DNA of 64,000 bases, taken from Methanosalsum zhilinae DSM 4017 (GTDB lineage Archaea > Halobacteriota > Methanosarcinia > Methanosarcinales > Methanosarcinaceae). The notes beneath the pieces are model-generated. The model saw nothing but the letters and a program-made list of their open reading frames with translations. It ran no database searches and was not told the DNA's origin. Both the position numbers and the translations under genes were made by a program. The stretch is taken from the NCBI RefSeq assembly GCF_000217995.1, contig NC_015676.1, forward strand, positions 846,103 to 910,102. The letters are read 5' to 3'. Below, piece after piece: positions 12,890-59,658 of the stretch. Each line of letters begins with the position of its first letter. Position 1 is the first letter of the stretch.

Positions 12890-12914
12890 ATGAGTATTAG
12901 ACTTCAGTGAACTA

Positions 12915-12934
12915 CACCACGCTTACGCATGGTG
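12915..12934 (-). other. Right-end hairpin of TnpB element copy 1 (reRNA 3' region)
   Basis: The stem CACCA/TGGTG encloses a loop that reads TGCGTAAGCG in the tnpB direction. Between the tnpB stop and this hairpin lies a second conserved stem (CCGTAGG/CTACGG type, about 12986-13001). In this family such a 3' region forms the guide RNA scaffold. The guide would begin after GTAGTTCAC and read into the flanking DNA. Confidence 0.65.
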
Positions 12935-13000
12935 CTTCTTGCTTCATTCTTTTCTCTTTTGAGAACAAGTCCACAAGCTCTTCCCGTAGTTCCTACGGTG

Positions 13001-14113
13001 CTAAATACCTATTAAGTTCTGCTTATCTAAAGCAAACTTTTTGATATTAATAGCGGCATTAATATCTCTGTCGTGATTGGTTTTACAATCGGGACATTGC
13101 CATTTTCTATCTGTAAGTGTTAACTTTCCGTTGTGGTAGCCACAAACATTACAGATTTTTGTACTTGGCTCGAATCTTCCGATACGGAGTATGGTTTTTC
13201 CGTACCATTCGGCTTTATATTCGAGTTTTTTTACGAAAGAACTCCATGATGCATCTGCTATACTTTGTGTAAGACAGTGGTTTTTCAACATACCGCTAAC
13301 GTTCAAAGTTTCCAATGCTACCGCTTGATTCTCGCTTATGAGCTTAGAGGATAACTTATGTTGAAAATCATTTCTTTGGTTGGCAATTTTTTCATAGAGT
13401 TTTGCTACTGCTACTTTTGCCCTTTGTCTATTAGCTGAACCTTTTTTCTTTTTGGAAAGTCTTTTCTGCAAAACTTTCATTCTTTTCATCGAGTTTTTAA
13501 GATATTTCGGATTATCAATTTTCTCACCAATTGAAGTAATGGCAAAGTCTTTGATTCCAACATCAACACCAACCGTTGTATCAATATTGAATGATTTATT
13601 TACAGGATTTTCTTTTTCATCATCGATGAGAATACTAATATAGTATTTTCCAGTAGATGTTCTACTTACTGTTGCTGTTTTCTCTTTACCTTCATATCTA
13701 CGATGTAGTTTCGCATTTATCCATCCAATCTTAGGTAGTTTAATTTTATTATTTTCAAAATCCACTTTGTAATGTTGAGGAACAGAAAAGGATTGAACTG
13801 GATTTTTCCTTGATTTGAACTTAGGAAAACCTTTCTTTTCCCTGAAAAATTTTGTAAATGCATTGTCAAGATTAAGTGTTGCTCCCTGTAATGATTGAGA
13901 ATTAATATTTTTCAACCAAACATGTTCTATTTTTAATTCAGGTATCATTTTGTTCAATGCAAACCTTGATATAGAATTACCTTCTGCTTCATATGATTTT
14001 ATCTTATTTTCTAAAGCCCAATTATAGATGAATCTACTAGCACCAATATGTTGTGAAATCATTTCTTCATGATTTTTATTCGGATACAATCTATATTTAT
14101 AGGCTTTCAACAT
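13001..14113 (-). CDS. tnpB: TnpB RNA-guided nuclease of IS200/IS605-type element, copy 1
   Basis: A 370-aa TnpB, the ancestor-type of Cas12 nucleases. The RuvC triad is visible as Asp184 (GVDVGIKDF), Glu268 (ALETLNVSG) and Asp350 (NHDRDINAA). The zinc ribbon is CNVC (321, 324) and CPDC (340, 343). The N-terminal helix-turn-helix OrfB domain starts MLKAYKYRLYPN. All catalytic residues are intact, so it is probably active. It differs from the copy at 58427-59539 at only two residues, Val234 (Leu there) and Tyr240 (His there). Confidence 0.96.
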   Translation of the reverse strand: MLKAYKYRLYPNKNHEEMISQHIGASRFIYNWALENKIKSYEAEGNSISRFALNKMIPELKIEHVWLKNINSQSLQGATLNLDNAFTKFFREKKGFPKFKSRKNPVQSFSVPQHYKVDFENNKIKLPKIGWINAKLHRRYEGKEKTATVSRTSTGKYYISILIDDEKENPVNKSFNIDTTVGVDVGIKDFAITSIGEKIDNPKYLKNSMKRMKVLQKRLSKKKKGSANRQRAKVAVAKLYEKIANQRNDFQHKLSSKLISENQAVALETLNVSGMLKNHCLTQSIADASWSSFVKKLEYKAEWYGKTILRIGRFEPSTKICNVCGYHNGKLTLTDRKWQCPDCKTNHDRDINAAINIKKFALDKQNLIGI

Positions 14114-14190
14114 ACACTTTATCTAATGACTTTAACATTATTTATAATTTATGTTAAAAAGATGATGCTTTCTCATTAGTACGCATTCAT

Positions 14191-14210
14191 CTCCTAGCTT
14201 ACGCAAGGAG
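14191..14210 (-). other. Left-end hairpin of TnpB element copy 1
   Basis: The arms CTCCT and AGGAG enclose a loop reading TGCGTAAGCT in the tnpB direction, nine of ten bases as in the right-end hairpin. Subterminal hairpins of this kind are the binding sites of the HUH transposase TnpA. The presumed target/TAM TTTAT lies 16 bases further out. Confidence 0.6.
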
Positions 14211-14247
14211 TCTTCTGCTAATTAAGATAAATCGTTCCTGAATAAAA

Positions 14248-37345: not shown

Positions 37346-38948
37346 CCAACTTTGACAGTCAAAAGTAATAAAAGTGTTCTTAGCTTTGTTGTATTCGATC
37401 AAAATGCAAACAAAACTAAGAACATATGATATTGTTCCCAATGAGAATATATGCTTTCCCATCGGAACTATTCTGACTGTAAATCAACTTTATGATATCC
37501 TTGACTTTTCTACTGTTTTTGGCAAACACAAAAAGAACGGTATCGATATCAACAACCTGCTGAAAGCTCTTGTAAGCTACAAGCTTACAGATAATTTCAG
37601 CATAAGTAAAGCCCATGAATGGATTAATCGAGATGAAGTTCTTGATATCTTCAATCTTCCTGAATTCAGTGAAAGAACTCTCTACAGGGTTCTTGAAACC
37701 CTAGGAAATAATCGTGAAACGATTATTTCTGATATCCAGGACAGACTGTTTACGAGATATGACTTCGAACATACTAATATCAACATGGACTGGTCTAGTC
37801 TTGTGTTGTATGGCGATAAATCGCCACTAGGTAAGTATGGCTATAGTCGTGACCACAGGCCAGATAAAAAACAGATTACATTGGGAATAAGTGAACTTGC
37901 AGATCCTATTAATGTCCCTATAGGTATCACAGTTGAACAGGGTAACCTGTCGGACCAGACACATTTCAAGAGAACTTATCAGCAAGTTAATAGAAGATTG
38001 AAACAAGGATCACTTGTTGTTTTTGATAAAGGAGCTCATAGTGTAGATAATACTGCCATGATAAGGGCAGATGAGATGCATTATTTGACTGCAAGGAAAC
38101 TCAATAGAAGCGATGATAAGAAAATAGCAACGTTCTGGGAATCTTCTCCTGAACTGATAGATCCAGAAAATGGAATCTATGGTCTTAAGATCGTTAAAAC
38201 AAGTAGTGTAAACTACTTCTATTTTTCAAAGAAACTTCAGAAAGAACAACTTGATTCAAAAGCAAGAAAAGTTATGAGACAAATAAAGGAAGCAAAGGTA
38301 ATACAGGAATCTATTGACAAGAACAAAAAAATTCCTAAAAGATTCAGGATCAACAATGTCCTTGTTGATGTGACTTATTCTCTGCAGACAAAACTGATGG
38401 AGCTTGATGAACAGGAAGCTACAAAACTTCTTGAAGAACATCTTATTACAGGCAGAGAAGGATTTTTCTGCCTGAAATCAAGCGAGAATTTGACACTAAT
38501 AGAAGCTCTTCAAACATACAGAAAAAAGGATAGTATCGAGAAAATTATTAATTCGCTGAAAAATGAGATAGAGATTAAACCACTACGAGTATGGACGGAT
38601 GCTAGCATTTATGGTGCTGTGATCATTGGGTTCATTGCACAACTGTTCATATCGTTGATGCGATATGAGTTCAACGAACTCAAGCACAAGTCAACAAAAT
38701 TCATCAAAAATAGCCTATTGAATTTGACAGTAACCGTTGATTGCACGAAAAGTCGAGCAAAAAGGTACATTTACGCAAACTTTGATACCATGAACACGCT
38801 GATTTTAAGGCAAAAATGGACAAAATCGTAGTACTTAGCATGAAATAATTTGAACTGTCAAATAGCTTTTCCTGACAAAAAAACGAGAATTTTGGGTTGA
38901 AAGAGAATACATTATCTTCTCCAAGGAGTCAAAACTGTCAAACTTGGG
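37346..38948 (+). mobile_element. IS1634/IS4-type insertion sequence
   Basis: A 1603-bp element with imperfect terminal inverted repeats: CCCAACTTTGACAGT at 37346-37360 and the complement of ACTGTCAAACTTGGG at 38934-38948 (14 of 15 match). ACTGTCAAA occurs again inside the right end at 38854. It carries one intact transposase. No convincing target duplication was found, so the exact ends are provisional. It lies between tRNA-Leu and the FKBP gene. Confidence 0.75.
37404..38831 (+). CDS. IS1634-like DDE transposase
   Basis: A 475-aa transposase, counting from the ATG at 37404 (MQTKLRTYDI); the frame opens ten codons earlier. Its order of motifs fits IS1634/IS4-type enzymes: NMDWSSLVLYG (first Asp), GYSRDHRPDKKQITLGI (split), VVFDKGAHS (second Asp) and ITGREGFFCL (Glu). 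Full length and undisturbed, so the element may be mobile. Confidence 0.88.
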   Translation: MQTKLRTYDIVPNENICFPIGTILTVNQLYDILDFSTVFGKHKKNGIDINNLLKALVSYKLTDNFSISKAHEWINRDEVLDIFNLPEFSERTLYRVLETLGNNRETIISDIQDRLFTRYDFEHTNINMDWSSLVLYGDKSPLGKYGYSRDHRPDKKQITLGISELADPINVPIGITVEQGNLSDQTHFKRTYQQVNRRLKQGSLVVFDKGAHSVDNTAMIRADEMHYLTARKLNRSDDKKIATFWESSPELIDPENGIYGLKIVKTSSVNYFYFSKKLQKEQLDSKARKVMRQIKEAKVIQESIDKNKKIPKRFRINNVLVDVTYSLQTKLMELDEQEATKLLEEHLITGREGFFCLKSSENLTLIEALQTYRKKDSIEKIINSLKNEIEIKPLRVWTDASIYGAVIIGFIAQLFISLMRYEFNELKHKSTKFIKNSLLNLTVTVDCTKSRAKRYIYANFDTMNTLILRQKWTKS

Positions 38949-40445: not shown

Positions 40446-40508
40446 ATGTCGAGATCGACCAGGAAATCTTTTGGCTTACCAGATAACTTTTATAATTGTA
40501 GCGCAAAA

Positions 40509-40531
40509 CCCCTATGTCTTTAGCATAGGGG
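40509..40531 (+). other. Left-end hairpin of the IS605-type element
   Basis: The perfect stem CCCCTATG/CATAGGGG with loop TCTTTAG lies 15 bases inside the presumed TTTAT target. The same loop recurs in the right-end hairpin. Confidence 0.7.
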
Positions 40532-40545
40532 ATGTAAGCGGTCTA

Positions 40546-40941
40546 TTAACCCTGATTCCGTATGTATTCTAATACCATTTCTTTGCTAACGTTTCCAATG
40601 GTGCTACAAAAATATCCATCACTCCATAAAGTGCGTTCATGCCAATAATAATATTTTAAGTGTAATTCTCTTTGTTCCCATAAACGATATGTTGATTCTT
40701 GTTTCAATCTTCTGACAATTGATAGGATACTGTATTTCGGTTGACTTTTAATGAGTAAATGGATATGGACTTCGTCTGTTTCCATTTCCACAATCTCAAA
40801 ATTAGATTTAGCGGCTATATCGTTGAGAGTGTCTTTTAATTCTATTTCGATGTCAATTAAGGCTTTACGTCTGTATTTACAGACAAAAATCACATGATAC
40901 AATAACAAAAACTTACTATGGTTTTTCTTTTCATACTTCAT
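40546..40941 (-). CDS. tnpA: TnpA, HUH/Y1 transposase of the IS200/IS605 family
   Basis: A 131-aa Y1 transposase of usual size. The HUH pair is in EVHIHLLI (His-Ile-His). The catalytic Tyr is in the C-terminal helix MVLEYIRNQG. The start MKYEKKNHSKFLLLYHVIF is typical. It performs single-strand cut-and-paste by binding the subterminal hairpins. It is divergent from tnpB, with 54 bp between starts. Confidence 0.94.
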   Translation of the reverse strand: MKYEKKNHSKFLLLYHVIFVCKYRRKALIDIEIELKDTLNDIAAKSNFEIVEMETDEVHIHLLIKSQPKYSILSIVRRLKQESTYRLWEQRELHLKYYYWHERTLWSDGYFCSTIGNVSKEMVLEYIRNQG

Positions 40942-40995
40942 ATACTACACTATTAACACAAACTACAAATAATGTTAACTCTAATATATGTTTGT

Positions 40996-42117
40996 ATGTT
41001 AAAAGCCTACAAATACAGAATGTATCCTACAAAAGAGCAGGAAGACCTGTTTTTTAAGCACTTCGGAGCTTGTAGATTCATCTATAATTGGGCTTTAGAA
41101 CAAAAAATTAAGACCTATGAACAGGACGGTAAATCAATTTCAAGGTTTGACCTGAATAAAGGGATAACTATGTTGAAAAGAGATGGAGAACACGAATGGC
41201 TCAAGGATGTTAATTCTCAGTCATTGCAGGGTGCTACCCTCAATCTCGACAACGCCTTTACGAAATTTTTCAGGGAAAAGAAAGGTTTTCCTAAGTTCAA
41301 ATCAAGGAAAAATCCAGTACAGGCTTATAATGTTCCTCAGAACTACAAGGTAGACTCTGAAAATAATAACATCTACCTTCCGAAAATAGGCAACGTGAAG
41401 ACTATTCTCCATCGTCCATTAGGTGACGGTGATTTAAGAACAGCTACGGTATCCCGTACATCTACTGGAAGATACTACATTAGTATCCTCGTAGATGATG
41501 GTGTGAAAATCCCGGAAAAAGCAGAATTTTCCGTAGATGATACCATAGGAGTAGATGTAGGCATCAAGGATTTTGCCATCACTTCAAACGGTGATAAAAT
41601 TGATAATCCAAGACACCTTAAAAACTCCATGAAGAGGCTTAAAGTCCTATCAAAACGCCTTTCCCGGAAAAAGAAAGGCTCCAGTAACAGGAACAAAGCC
41701 CGTCAACAGGTAGCTAAACTCCATGAGAAAATAGCAAACCAAAGACATGATTTCCAACATAAGGTTTCATCAAAGCTCGTTAGCGAGAACCAAGCCATAG
41801 CAGTAGAGACCTTAAATGTATCCGGTATGCTTAAAAATCATTGTCTAGCTCAACACATAGCTGACGCATCGTGGCCTTCATTCATAACACAACTTGAATA
41901 TAAAGCTGAATGGTACGGAAAGACAATTCTCCGTATCGGAAGATTCGAGCCAAGTACAAAAATCTGTAATGTTTGCGGATACTACAATGGTTCCATAACA
42001 TTAGCAGATAGAGAATGGCAATGCCCGGACTGTAATACCAATCACGATAGAGACATAAATGCAGCTATCAACATTAAGAAATTCGCTCTCCAAGAGCAGA
42101 ACTTAATAGGAATATAA
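40996..42117 (+). CDS. tnpB: TnpB RNA-guided nuclease of the IS605-type element
   Basis: A 373-aa TnpB from the ATG at 40996 (MLKAYKYRMYPT); the frame opens eight codons earlier. The RuvC residues are present (VGVDVGIKDFA, AVETLNVSG, NHDRDINAA) and so is the zinc ribbon (CNVC, CPDC). It is clearly related to the twin copies but different through much of the N-terminal half. The region after the stop holds the shared CCGTAGGAACTACGGGAAGAG stem, then the right end. Confidence 0.95.
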   Translation: MLKAYKYRMYPTKEQEDLFFKHFGACRFIYNWALEQKIKTYEQDGKSISRFDLNKGITMLKRDGEHEWLKDVNSQSLQGATLNLDNAFTKFFREKKGFPKFKSRKNPVQAYNVPQNYKVDSENNNIYLPKIGNVKTILHRPLGDGDLRTATVSRTSTGRYYISILVDDGVKIPEKAEFSVDDTIGVDVGIKDFAITSNGDKIDNPRHLKNSMKRLKVLSKRLSRKKKGSSNRNKARQQVAKLHEKIANQRHDFQHKVSSKLVSENQAIAVETLNVSGMLKNHCLAQHIADASWPSFITQLEYKAEWYGKTILRIGRFEPSTKICNVCGYYNGSITLADREWQCPDCNTNHDRDINAAINIKKFALQEQNLIGI

Positions 42118-42119
42118 TC

Positions 42120-42217
42120 GTCACCGTAGGAACTACGGGAAGAGCCTGTGGACTTGCTTCCGTTGGGAAGGGGATGAAACAGGAAGCCACGGAGTCTTTA
42201 GCTCCGGGGTAGTTCAC
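42120..42217 (+). ncRNA. Predicted guide-RNA scaffold (reRNA) 3' region of tnpB
   Basis: Downstream of tnpB, CCGTAGGAACTACGGG (a hairpin) is followed by a ~50-nt linker and CGGAG-TCTTTAG-CTCCG, ending in GTAGTTCAC. The first hairpin and the last segment recur after both twin tnpB genes, despite sequence divergence between. Conservation outside the gene supports an RNA function. The guide would be what follows GTAGTTCAC at 42218. Confidence 0.6.
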
Positions 42218-42413
42218 TCCAACTCGTAGGCCATCGTTCCAGTGGAGGCAGAAGGAGTACAAATTATTTTGACCAAGTTGTAATGATCTATCAGGCAAAG
42301 GAAGTCAAAATTAAGATGTTAGTATATAGCATCGAAAGGTATAACTTATTGCAATTATTATTCAGCCAAGGATTTCTACAGAGCTATTTAAATCTGAATT
42401 AAGGAACTAAATT

Positions 42414-58331: not shown

Positions 58332-59658
58332 AGTGAACTACACCACGCTTACGCATGGTGCTTCTTGCTTCATTCTTTTCTCTTTTGAGAACAAGTCCAC
58401 AAGCTCTTCCCGTAGTTCCTACGGTGCTAAATACCTATTAAGTTCTGCTTATCTAAAGCAAACTTTTTGATATTAATAGCGGCATTAATATCTCTGTCGT
58501 GATTGGTTTTACAATCGGGACATTGCCATTTTCTATCTGTAAGTGTTAACTTTCCGTTGTGGTAGCCACAAACATTACAGATTTTTGTACTTGGCTCGAA
58601 TCTTCCGATACGGAGTATGGTTTTTCCGTACCATTCGGCTTTATATTCGAGTTTTTTTACGAAAGAACTCCATGATGCATCTGCTATACTTTGTGTAAGA
58701 CAGTGGTTTTTCAACATACCGCTAACGTTCAAAGTTTCCAATGCTACCGCTTGATTCTCGCTTATGAGCTTAGAGGATAACTTATGTTGAAAATCATTTC
58801 TTTGGTTGGCAATTTTTTCATGGAGTTTTGCTACTGCTAATTTTGCCCTTTGTCTATTAGCTGAACCTTTTTTCTTTTTGGAAAGTCTTTTCTGCAAAAC
58901 TTTCATTCTTTTCATCGAGTTTTTAAGATATTTCGGATTATCAATTTTCTCACCAATTGAAGTAATGGCAAAGTCTTTGATTCCAACATCAACACCAACC
59001 GTTGTATCAATATTGAATGATTTATTTACAGGATTTTCTTTTTCATCATCGATGAGAATACTAATATAGTATTTTCCAGTAGATGTTCTACTTACTGTTG
59101 CTGTTTTCTCTTTACCTTCATATCTACGATGTAGTTTCGCATTTATCCATCCAATCTTAGGTAGTTTAATTTTATTATTTTCAAAATCCACTTTGTAATG
59201 TTGAGGAACAGAAAAGGATTGAACTGGATTTTTCCTTGATTTGAACTTAGGAAAACCTTTCTTTTCCCTGAAAAATTTTGTAAATGCATTGTCAAGATTA
59301 AGTGTTGCTCCCTGTAATGATTGAGAATTAATATTTTTCAACCAAACATGTTCTATTTTTAATTCAGGTATCATTTTGTTCAATGCAAACCTTGATATAG
59401 AATTACCTTCTGCTTCATATGATTTTATCTTATTTTCTAAAGCCCAATTATAGATGAATCTACTAGCACCAATATGTTGTGAAATCATTTCTTCATGATT
59501 TTTATTCGGATACAATCTATATTTATAGGCTTTCAACATACACTTTATCTAATGACTTTAACATTATTTATAATTGGTGTTAAAAAGATGATGCTTTCTC
59601 ATTAGTACGCATTCATCTCCTAGCTTACGCAAGGAGTCTTCTGCTAATTAAGATAAAT
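58332..59658 (-). mobile_element. TnpB-only IS200/IS605-type element, copy 2
   Basis: A 1327-bp twin of the element at 12906-14232, in the same orientation and with about four differences (two in tnpB, two next to each other upstream). The ends and hairpins are the same (right 58341-58360, left 59617-59636). It sits between AMMECR1 and pgk. Its near-identity shows a recent copy event. Confidence 0.93.
58427..59539 (-). CDS. tnpB: TnpB RNA-guided nuclease of IS200/IS605-type element, copy 2
   Basis: A 370-aa TnpB identical to the copy at 13001-14113 except Leu234 (Val there) and His240 (Tyr there). The RuvC residues Asp184, Glu268, Asp350 and the zinc Cys are kept. The different flanking DNA means a different guide sequence after GTAGTTCAC: it begins TTTACATATAAA here and TGAAGTCTAATA at copy 1. 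Confidence 0.96.
   Translation of the reverse strand: MLKAYKYRLYPNKNHEEMISQHIGASRFIYNWALENKIKSYEAEGNSISRFALNKMIPELKIEHVWLKNINSQSLQGATLNLDNAFTKFFREKKGFPKFKSRKNPVQSFSVPQHYKVDFENNKIKLPKIGWINAKLHRRYEGKEKTATVSRTSTGKYYISILIDDEKENPVNKSFNIDTTVGVDVGIKDFAITSIGEKIDNPKYLKNSMKRMKVLQKRLSKKKKGSANRQRAKLAVAKLHEKIANQRNDFQHKLSSKLISENQAVALETLNVSGMLKNHCLTQSIADASWSSFVKKLEYKAEWYGKTILRIGRFEPSTKICNVCGYHNGKLTLTDRKWQCPDCKTNHDRDINAAINIKKFALDKQNLIGI

What the first reader, a model, noticed from the sequence alone, without database searches (positions are those of the whole stretch)
40489..42217. Matching hairpin loops identify element ends and predict the TnpB target TTTAT
In the IS605-type element both end hairpins carry loop TCTTTAG. 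In the twin elements both carry TGCGTAAGC. The two kinds thus have separate end codes but share the outer context TTTAT on the left and GTAGTTCACT on the right. TTTAT is therefore a candidate target site and TnpB recognition motif (TAM).
Basis: partly seen in the sequence, partly recalled or inferred. Interest (0 to 1): 0.55.

Follow-up and report, generated by a model that had tools for sequence, protein, structure and literature searches.

The report
Transposon end codes; insertion target TTTAT
A small archaeal jumping gene and its near-identical cousins carry different hairpin tags at their ends but sit after the same five letters, TTTAT; related genomes confirm that site and hint that the hairpin tags are exchanged between elements.

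Summary
At 40489-42217 an IS200/IS605 element (tnpA, tnpB) follows TTTAT and ends in TTCAC; both end hairpins have loop TCTTTAG. Two TnpB-only copies (12907-14231, 58333-59657; two more elsewhere in the genome) carry TGCGTAAGC at both ends and also follow TTTAT. Correction: the shared right end is GTAGTTCAC; the last T is flank. Target: 5 of 5 complete copies here, 28 of 28 fetched copies in one Methanosarcina-type genome; 127 of 133 readable left ends in the family have a TTTA core. Of 20 insertions tested, 8 have relatives whose empty site reads TTTAT exactly at the junction, without duplication. A 'guide' beside the left hairpin co-varies with the fifth target base (Watson-Crick in 122 of 127), as the IS608 model predicts. 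So loops plausibly say which TnpA, guides which site. TTTAT as TnpB's TAM follows known practice; untested here. Beyond the finding: end codes are uncoupled from TnpB ancestry (at least 13 changes on the TnpB tree), codes A, B and C each go with a TnpA clade, and no TnpA of the twins' clade was found in this genome. In passing: the twins differ in a contiguous 4-nt block beside tnpB's TATA-like box.

The parts
40489..40493 (+). TTTAT, insertion target (left flank) and predicted TAM
   Evidence: target confirmed in relatives
40494..42217 (+). IS200/IS605-type element (tnpA + tnpB), end code A
40504..40508 (+). CAAAA, putative left guide (GL) 5' of the left hairpin
   Evidence: position as in IS608 (PMC5934647); covariation
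40509..40531 (+). left-end hairpin CCCCTATG-TCTTTAG-CATAGGGG
40546..40941 (-). tnpA, Y1 (HUH) transposase, 131 aa
   Evidence: Pfam Y1_Tnp E 8.7e-33; ISHp608 TnpA 2a6m E 5.3e-20
40972..42117 (+). tnpB, RNA-guided nuclease, 381 aa from this start (ATG at 40996 fits the twins' start better)
   Evidence: Pfam; ISDra2-type TnpB 8h1j E 3.6e-78
42183..42186 (+). GAAG, putative right guide (GR)
   Evidence: GAAG with TTCAC here, GAAT with TTCAA in L252, L253, L259
42187..42209 (+). right-end hairpin with loop TCTTTAG
42213..42217 (+). TTCAC, right cleavage site, last bases of the element
42218..42237 (+). right flank = predicted guide of the omega-RNA
   Evidence: inference from knowledge of TnpB systems
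14227..14231 (-). TTTAT, target of twin copy 1
12907..14226 (-). TnpB-only element, twin copy 1, end code B (loops at 14197-14205 and 12921-12929); tnpB 13001-14113
14149..14152 (-). variable 4-nt slot, here ATAA
59653..59657 (-). TTTAT, target of twin copy 2
58333..59652 (-). TnpB-only element, twin copy 2, end code B (loops at 59623-59631 and 58347-58355); tnpB 58427-59539
59575..59578 (-). variable 4-nt slot, here ACCA

Best explanation
These are IS200/IS605-family elements moved as single-stranded DNA by a Y1 TnpA. Their ends carry two separate addresses. The hairpin tip (TCTTTAG here, a GTAA tetraloop in the twins) is the tag read by a particular TnpA clade. The 4-5 bases just 5' of the left hairpin are a guide that pairs with the target and fixes insertion 3' of TTTAT; a right guide (GAAG) fixes the right end at TTCAC. 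TnpB, with an RNA ending in the right flank, should recognise the same TTTAT as its TAM and cut the re-sealed empty site. Shown here: ends, target, absence of target duplication, guide-target covariation. Inferred: tip recognition by TnpA, pairing itself, TAM, cutting.
For: Own genome: TTTAT at 5 of 5 complete copies, and at two relics whose left end is visible, L007 and L009. G083: 28 of 28 fetched copies (one search counts 38 TnpA matches in that genome, fragments and other clades included). G079: 4 of 4. TnpA-bearing code-C loci: 12 of 12 have fifth base T (the pattern itself demanded TTTA). Of 147 left ends, 133 had a readable guide plus stem and 127 of these a perfect TTTA core (one random place in shuffled sequence: 9%); fifth target base against last guide base: T-A 93, A-T 28, C-G 1, five exceptions. 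Collapsed to distinct types, 45 of 50 are Watson-Crick. Empty sites: code A, sites L085, L087, L102 with TTTAT at the junction in 5 of 6, 8 of 10 and 3 of 3 aligned relatives; code B, sites L119, L120, L124, L127, L129 in 3 of 3, 2 of 2, 4 of 4, 1 of 5 and 3 of 3; one TTTAA insertion (L287), 2 of 2 with TTTAA. Three TnpA-bearing code-B elements end in TTCAA with guide GAAT instead of TTCAC with GAAG. IS608 has CL TTAC/GL AAAG and CR TCAA/GR GAAT, guides 5' of each hairpin (PMC5934647, passages and section 11).
Against: No binding, excision or cleavage assay. Exceptions: L118 sits after TTTTT; L130 after TTTAC with guide ending A; L126, L256, L303, L159 also break the pairing rule. Six readable left ends lack the TTTA core (L118, L162, L310, L315, L321, L322) and 14 of 147 could not be read. 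Twelve of the 20 insertions tested gave no empty site with TTTAT, apart from the TTTAA site: L079 aligned in four relatives, none with TTTAT; L086 has lost about 480 bases of flank; L098 gave two partial matches without TTTAT; L118 six poor alignments, one with TTTAT at the junction; L101, L104, L122, L130, L131, L136, L288 no spanning alignment. Counts include near-copies (28 from one genome).
Confidence: 0.9

Rival explanations
1. The flanking TTTAT is part of the element, or a mere preference for AT-rich DNA, not a target read by the guide.
For: The flanks are AT-rich; a TTTA core turns up in 9% of shuffled places.
Against: Relatives hold TTTAT at the empty place; TTTAA insertions have a matching guide, and the one with empty sites has TTTAA there; 127 of 133 have the core.
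Confidence: 0.03
2. The resident code-A TnpA moves both kinds in this genome, so the loop is not a specific address.
For: It is the only Y1 transposase found in this genome, yet four near-identical code-B copies are present. A further TnpA group (L239, L240) has a CTTTAG-like tip, so tips are not exclusive to one clade.
Against: Code-B tips occur beside TnpAs of another clade in Methanohalophilus and one other genus, 28-32% identical to the resident TnpA; left and right codes agree within most elements, which suggests specific reading.
Confidence: 0.25
3. The mixed code pattern reflects recombination of tnpB genes between elements rather than acquisition of new ends by a TnpB lineage.
For: Mosaic elements exist (L128, L135, L284, L285 have different codes at their two ends); a TnpB tree cannot tell which part moved.
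Against: Dual left ends (outer code C, inner code B) in L133 and L134 look like an end added outside an older end.
Confidence: 0.3

Closest known systems
IS608 (ISHp608), IS200/IS605 family
   Same: Y1 TnpA, tnpB, sub-terminal hairpins, insertion 3' of a short target, guide 5' of each hairpin (PMC5934647, passages and section 11)
   Different: target TTTAT instead of TTAC; other hairpin tips; archaeal
Sulfolobus islandicus TnpB elements (PMC10640517, passages)
   Same: TTTAT at the left end of solo tnpB elements, TAM inferred from the left flank
   Different: there elements with tnpA and tnpB have TTTAA, here the tnpA-bearing element has TTTAT; the TnpB assayed there used TTTAA
ISDra2 / ISYmu1 TnpB
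   Same: homologous TnpB; PMC12908284 (passages) gives TTTAT as their TAM
   Different: different ends and host; ISDra2 inserts after TTGAT according to PMC5934647 (passages)
IS605 elements of Halanaerobium hydrogeniformans (PMC7290912, passages)
   Same: a loop pentanucleotide shared by both ends is proposed as the TnpA tag; copies thought able to move in trans
   Different: one loop tag described in the passages that I saw
IStrons of group A (PMC4227781, one passage)
   Same: inserted downstream of TTGAT, ATTAT or TTTAT
   Different: carry a group I intron; end in TCAG

Membership tests
IS200/IS605 family (window 40494-42217) | Y1 HUH transposase | tested here: met
   Pfam Y1_Tnp; HIH and C-terminal Tyr align with ISHp608 TnpA
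IS200/IS605 family (window 40494-42217) | sub-terminal hairpins at both ends | tested here: met
IS200/IS605 family (window 40494-42217) | insertion 3' of a fixed short target, no target duplication | tested here: met
   empty sites of related copies; for the window's own copy no empty site was found in its genus: left flank did not align in G072, nothing usable in G073
IS200/IS605 family (window 40494-42217) | single-stranded circular intermediate | not testable with these tools
   needs an excision assay
IS1341-like (TnpB-only) twins | tnpB alone between IS605-type ends | tested here: met
TnpB RNA-guided nuclease | RuvC D-E-D and zinc-finger region | tested here: met
   alignment of both window TnpBs to a solved TnpB-type nuclease; which residues are catalytic is from recall and PMC10640517 passages
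TnpB RNA-guided nuclease | TAM-dependent guided cutting | not testable with these tools
   needs a cleavage assay
IS608-type guide mechanism | guide complementary to the target and co-varying with it | tested here: met
   122 of 127 Watson-Crick at the last base; pairing itself not shown

The most novel reading that the evidence does not exclude
TnpB cassettes without a transposase change their end hairpins to match different TnpA clades, keeping the same right-end scaffold, the TTCAC end and mostly the TTTAT target. The tip would be an address for a carrier TnpA, the guide an address for the site, and the twins here would be riders whose carrier TnpA is not, or no longer, in the genome.
Probability: 0.5. 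Interest if true: 0.7.

Novelty: new member of a known kind. Interest (0 to 1): 0.5.

Why it matters
How TnpB-only elements move, when TnpB far outnumbers TnpA, is an open question (PMC3119063 and PMC9956272, passages). Here end codes can be tied to TnpA clades, so which transposase moves which TnpB becomes testable by swapping hairpin tips. The natural T-A and A-T covariation (with one C-G case) is an evolutionary test of the guide model worked out on IS608, and the TAM of a large archaeal TnpB group can be predicted from its left guide.

Tried and rejected
Empty site of the window's own element: its right-hand gene was found in the same-genus genome G072 (81% identity) but the left flank did not align. 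Rfam on 41900-42400: no match up to E 1.

Guide table: three earlier counts were superseded. One search (stem-first) gave T-A 69, A-T 12, others 13, but misread branched and extended hairpins; one search put the stem base one letter off in code A; one search read only 87 of 148 left ends (T-A 76, A-T 4, others 6). One search is used: the guide and stem are sought without the target, but the best of nine spacings, and the best of several guide candidates in one locus, is kept. The 147 elements leave out ten loci (nine seen under another number, and L323, the same place as L249) and loci whose tnpB match begins after residue 40; all loci were found by likeness to this window's TnpB, TnpA or code-B right end, so they are no random sample. 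The right-guide count suffers from the same one-letter shift and is given only as examples.

Codes were set by patterns that I wrote; L133, L289, L294, L301, L303 and L313 were set by eye before the tree was built. The 83-row TnpB tree leaves out loci seen under another number, 25 of the 28 G083 copies, near-copies L003, L004, L107-L109, L282, L295, L305, rows dropped by hand (L145, L151, L154, L159, L310, L314, L315, L321, L323), copies with more than 11 stops, and partial tnpB. It is a quick tree without bootstrap. A third clade test (six own-type rows without L278, p-AU 1.0e-5) was named after seeing the tree and is not used.

Empty sites: only part of the spanning matches were fetched and aligned: L087 10 of 13, L120 2 of 3, L124 4 of 5, L129 3 of 4; L085 6 of 6 strong ones (one weak match at 69% not looked at). 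At L102 six alignments of 69-78% identity, to what I take for paralogous repeats, none with TTTAT at the junction, were not counted. Both match lists were cut by the tool.

The 52 loci were found with a right end spelled TTCAC, so TnpA-bearing code-B elements ending in TTCAA could not appear among them, and many were cut at contig ends.

Full report
What is there. The window holds one IS200/IS605 element (40494-42217) with a divergent pair: a 131-aa Y1 transposase TnpA on the minus strand and a TnpB on the plus strand. It sits directly after TTTAT (40489-40493) and ends in GTAGTTCAC. Two further elements (12907-14226 and 58333-59652, minus strand) hold tnpB alone; the genome (one contig, 2,138,444 bases) has four complete copies of this kind, 1325 bases each counted from TTTAT. 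The TnpBs of the two kinds are 76% identical. The only Y1 transposase found in the genome is the element's own (one further hit, E 0.094, lies below the family cut-off).

Loops. Both hairpins of the first element have loop TCTTTAG, both of the twins TGCGTAAGC, which folds as a GTAA tetraloop on two C-G pairs. The word TCTTTAG alone is not rare in the window. GTAGTTCAC is shared; the next T in the finding is flank.

Target. TTTAT is next to 5 of 5 complete copies and two relics, 28 of 28 fetched copies in G083, 4 of 4 in G079, 12 of 12 TnpA-bearing code-C loci (pattern demanded TTTA). Names: record titles together with equal contig lengths identify several handles (G016 Methanococcoides alaskense, G026 Methanococcoides vulcani, G031 Methanohalophilus euhalobius, G036 Methanohalophilus profundi, G039 Methanolobus bombayensis; lengths). 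That G083's genus is Methanosarcina is recalled from a genome length; that the window's genome is a Methanosalsum is recall too and not established.

Empty sites. Joined flanks of eight G083 insertions and twelve insertions of TnpB-only code-B elements were searched in relatives. Code A: L085, 6 relatives aligned through the junction, 5 with TTTAT; L087, 10 relatives, 8 with TTTAT; L102, 3 of 3; L079, 4 relatives, none with TTTAT, one of them ungapped (G101); L098, two partial matches without TTTAT; L086 has lost about 480 bases of flank compared with three relatives; L101 and L104 nothing spanning. Code B: L119 3 of 3, L120 2 of 2, L124 4 of 4, L129 3 of 3, L127 1 of 5 with TTTAT; L118 (itself after TTTTT) six poor alignments, one with TTTAT; L287, whose flank is TTTAA, 2 of 2 with TTTAA; the other five nothing spanning. 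At the eight TTTAT sites and the TTTAA site the junction aligns with nothing duplicated and nothing lost.

Guide. In IS608 a tetranucleotide 5' of each hairpin pairs with the cleavage site (PMC5934647). Of 147 left ends collected here, 133 show a guide plus stem; 127 have a TTTA core upstream. The fifth target base and the guide's last base are T-A 93, A-T 28, C-G 1; exceptions 5. The pattern holds inside one stem type: stems starting CCCCTTCC follow GAAGT after TTTAA (10 elements plus one with GAAAT) and GAAGA after TTTAT (2), with one exception (L303, GAAGG after TTTAT). PMC5934647 as read gives pairs for the two T's of the target; that the last base pairs is my reading of its listed sequences (TTAC/AAAG, TCAA/GAAT).

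Codes and TnpA clades. Four codes were common: A TCTTTAG, B GTAA, C TTTTCAAA/TATTCATA, D branched CTTCCTCG. Of 110 elements with both ends read, left and right agree in 100 (A 49, B 25, C 14, D 12), differ in 2 (L284 and L285, D/B), and 8 were not classed on one or both sides; by eye L128 and L135 are A/B. TnpAs beside code-B ends (L251, L252, L253, L258, L264) are 80-95% identical to that of L259, and those beside code-C ends 75-99% to that of L249, while the clades A, B and C are 23-35% identical to one another. No TnpA of the resident type lay in the 52 loci found by the code-B right end (see the limits under Tried and rejected). In 8 of 21 genomes scanned no Y1 transposase was found at E 0.01 although most of these carry TnpB relatives (G002, which also has none, had no TnpB match either). 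The code is not exclusive to one clade: a further TnpA group (L239, L240) has a CTTTAG-like tip.

Swapping. On a tree of 83 TnpB proteins the right-end code changes at least 13 times where 4 would do; holding all C or all B rows together is rejected (p-AU 2.4e-40 and 1.1e-24; codes were assigned before the tree). L278 has code C at both ends but a TnpB inside the own-type code-A clade. L133 and L134 carry an outer code-C left end, then a code-B left end, and a code-C right end. So ends and TnpB have been recombined repeatedly; that this serves to ride other TnpAs is inference.

Novelty. Literature searches. TTTAT as a TAM, loop tags and guides are known. In those listings I saw no title or abstract on exchange of end codes among TnpB-only elements, but only a few papers were opened, in passages, and subscription journals are missing.

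Noticed in passing
window 14149-14152 and 59575-59578; L002-L005 element positions 80-83: The four twin copies vary at 4 scattered sites of 1325 plus one contiguous 4-nt block, where every copy is different (GCAT, ACCA, ATAA, ACGA; ACAA is the commonest of 25 elements read, 6 cases). It lies just upstream of a TATA-like ATTATAAATA of tnpB, where a BRE would sit (BRE from recall). Random placement of 8 variable columns gave 4 in a row once in 500,000 tries.
   Followed up: partly
L078-L105 (G083), alignment columns 451-475: The tnpA-tnpB promoter region is also the most variable part of 26 alignable code-A copies: pairwise difference 0.110 against 0.027 at fourfold sites of tnpB. G079's four copies are identical there, so it is not universal.
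   Followed up: partly
L123, L126, L128, L135, L265, L268, L269, L271, L274, L275, L286: Left hairpins of codes A and C carry a similar extra module of about 50 bases at the apex (CATTAAATC..GATTTAATG plus a second hairpin).
   Followed up: no
L133, L134: Two left ends of different code in tandem in one element, present in two insertions of one genome.
   Followed up: partly
L086 (G083): About 480 bases of the target gene next to the insertion are missing compared with three relatives.
   Followed up: partly
L187, L188, L189; L140: Code-B right ends also occur on three contigs of a viral collection (two with a left end after TTTAT) and on a Candidatus Hydrothermarchaeum contig, outside the family.
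   Followed up: no
window 42292-42384: A stretch of about 90 bases beside the element is repeated at several places in the same-genus genome G072.
   Followed up: no
window 37374-38831: A DDE transposase gene (Pfam DDE_Tnp_1, weak, E 2.3e-5) close by.
   Followed up: no
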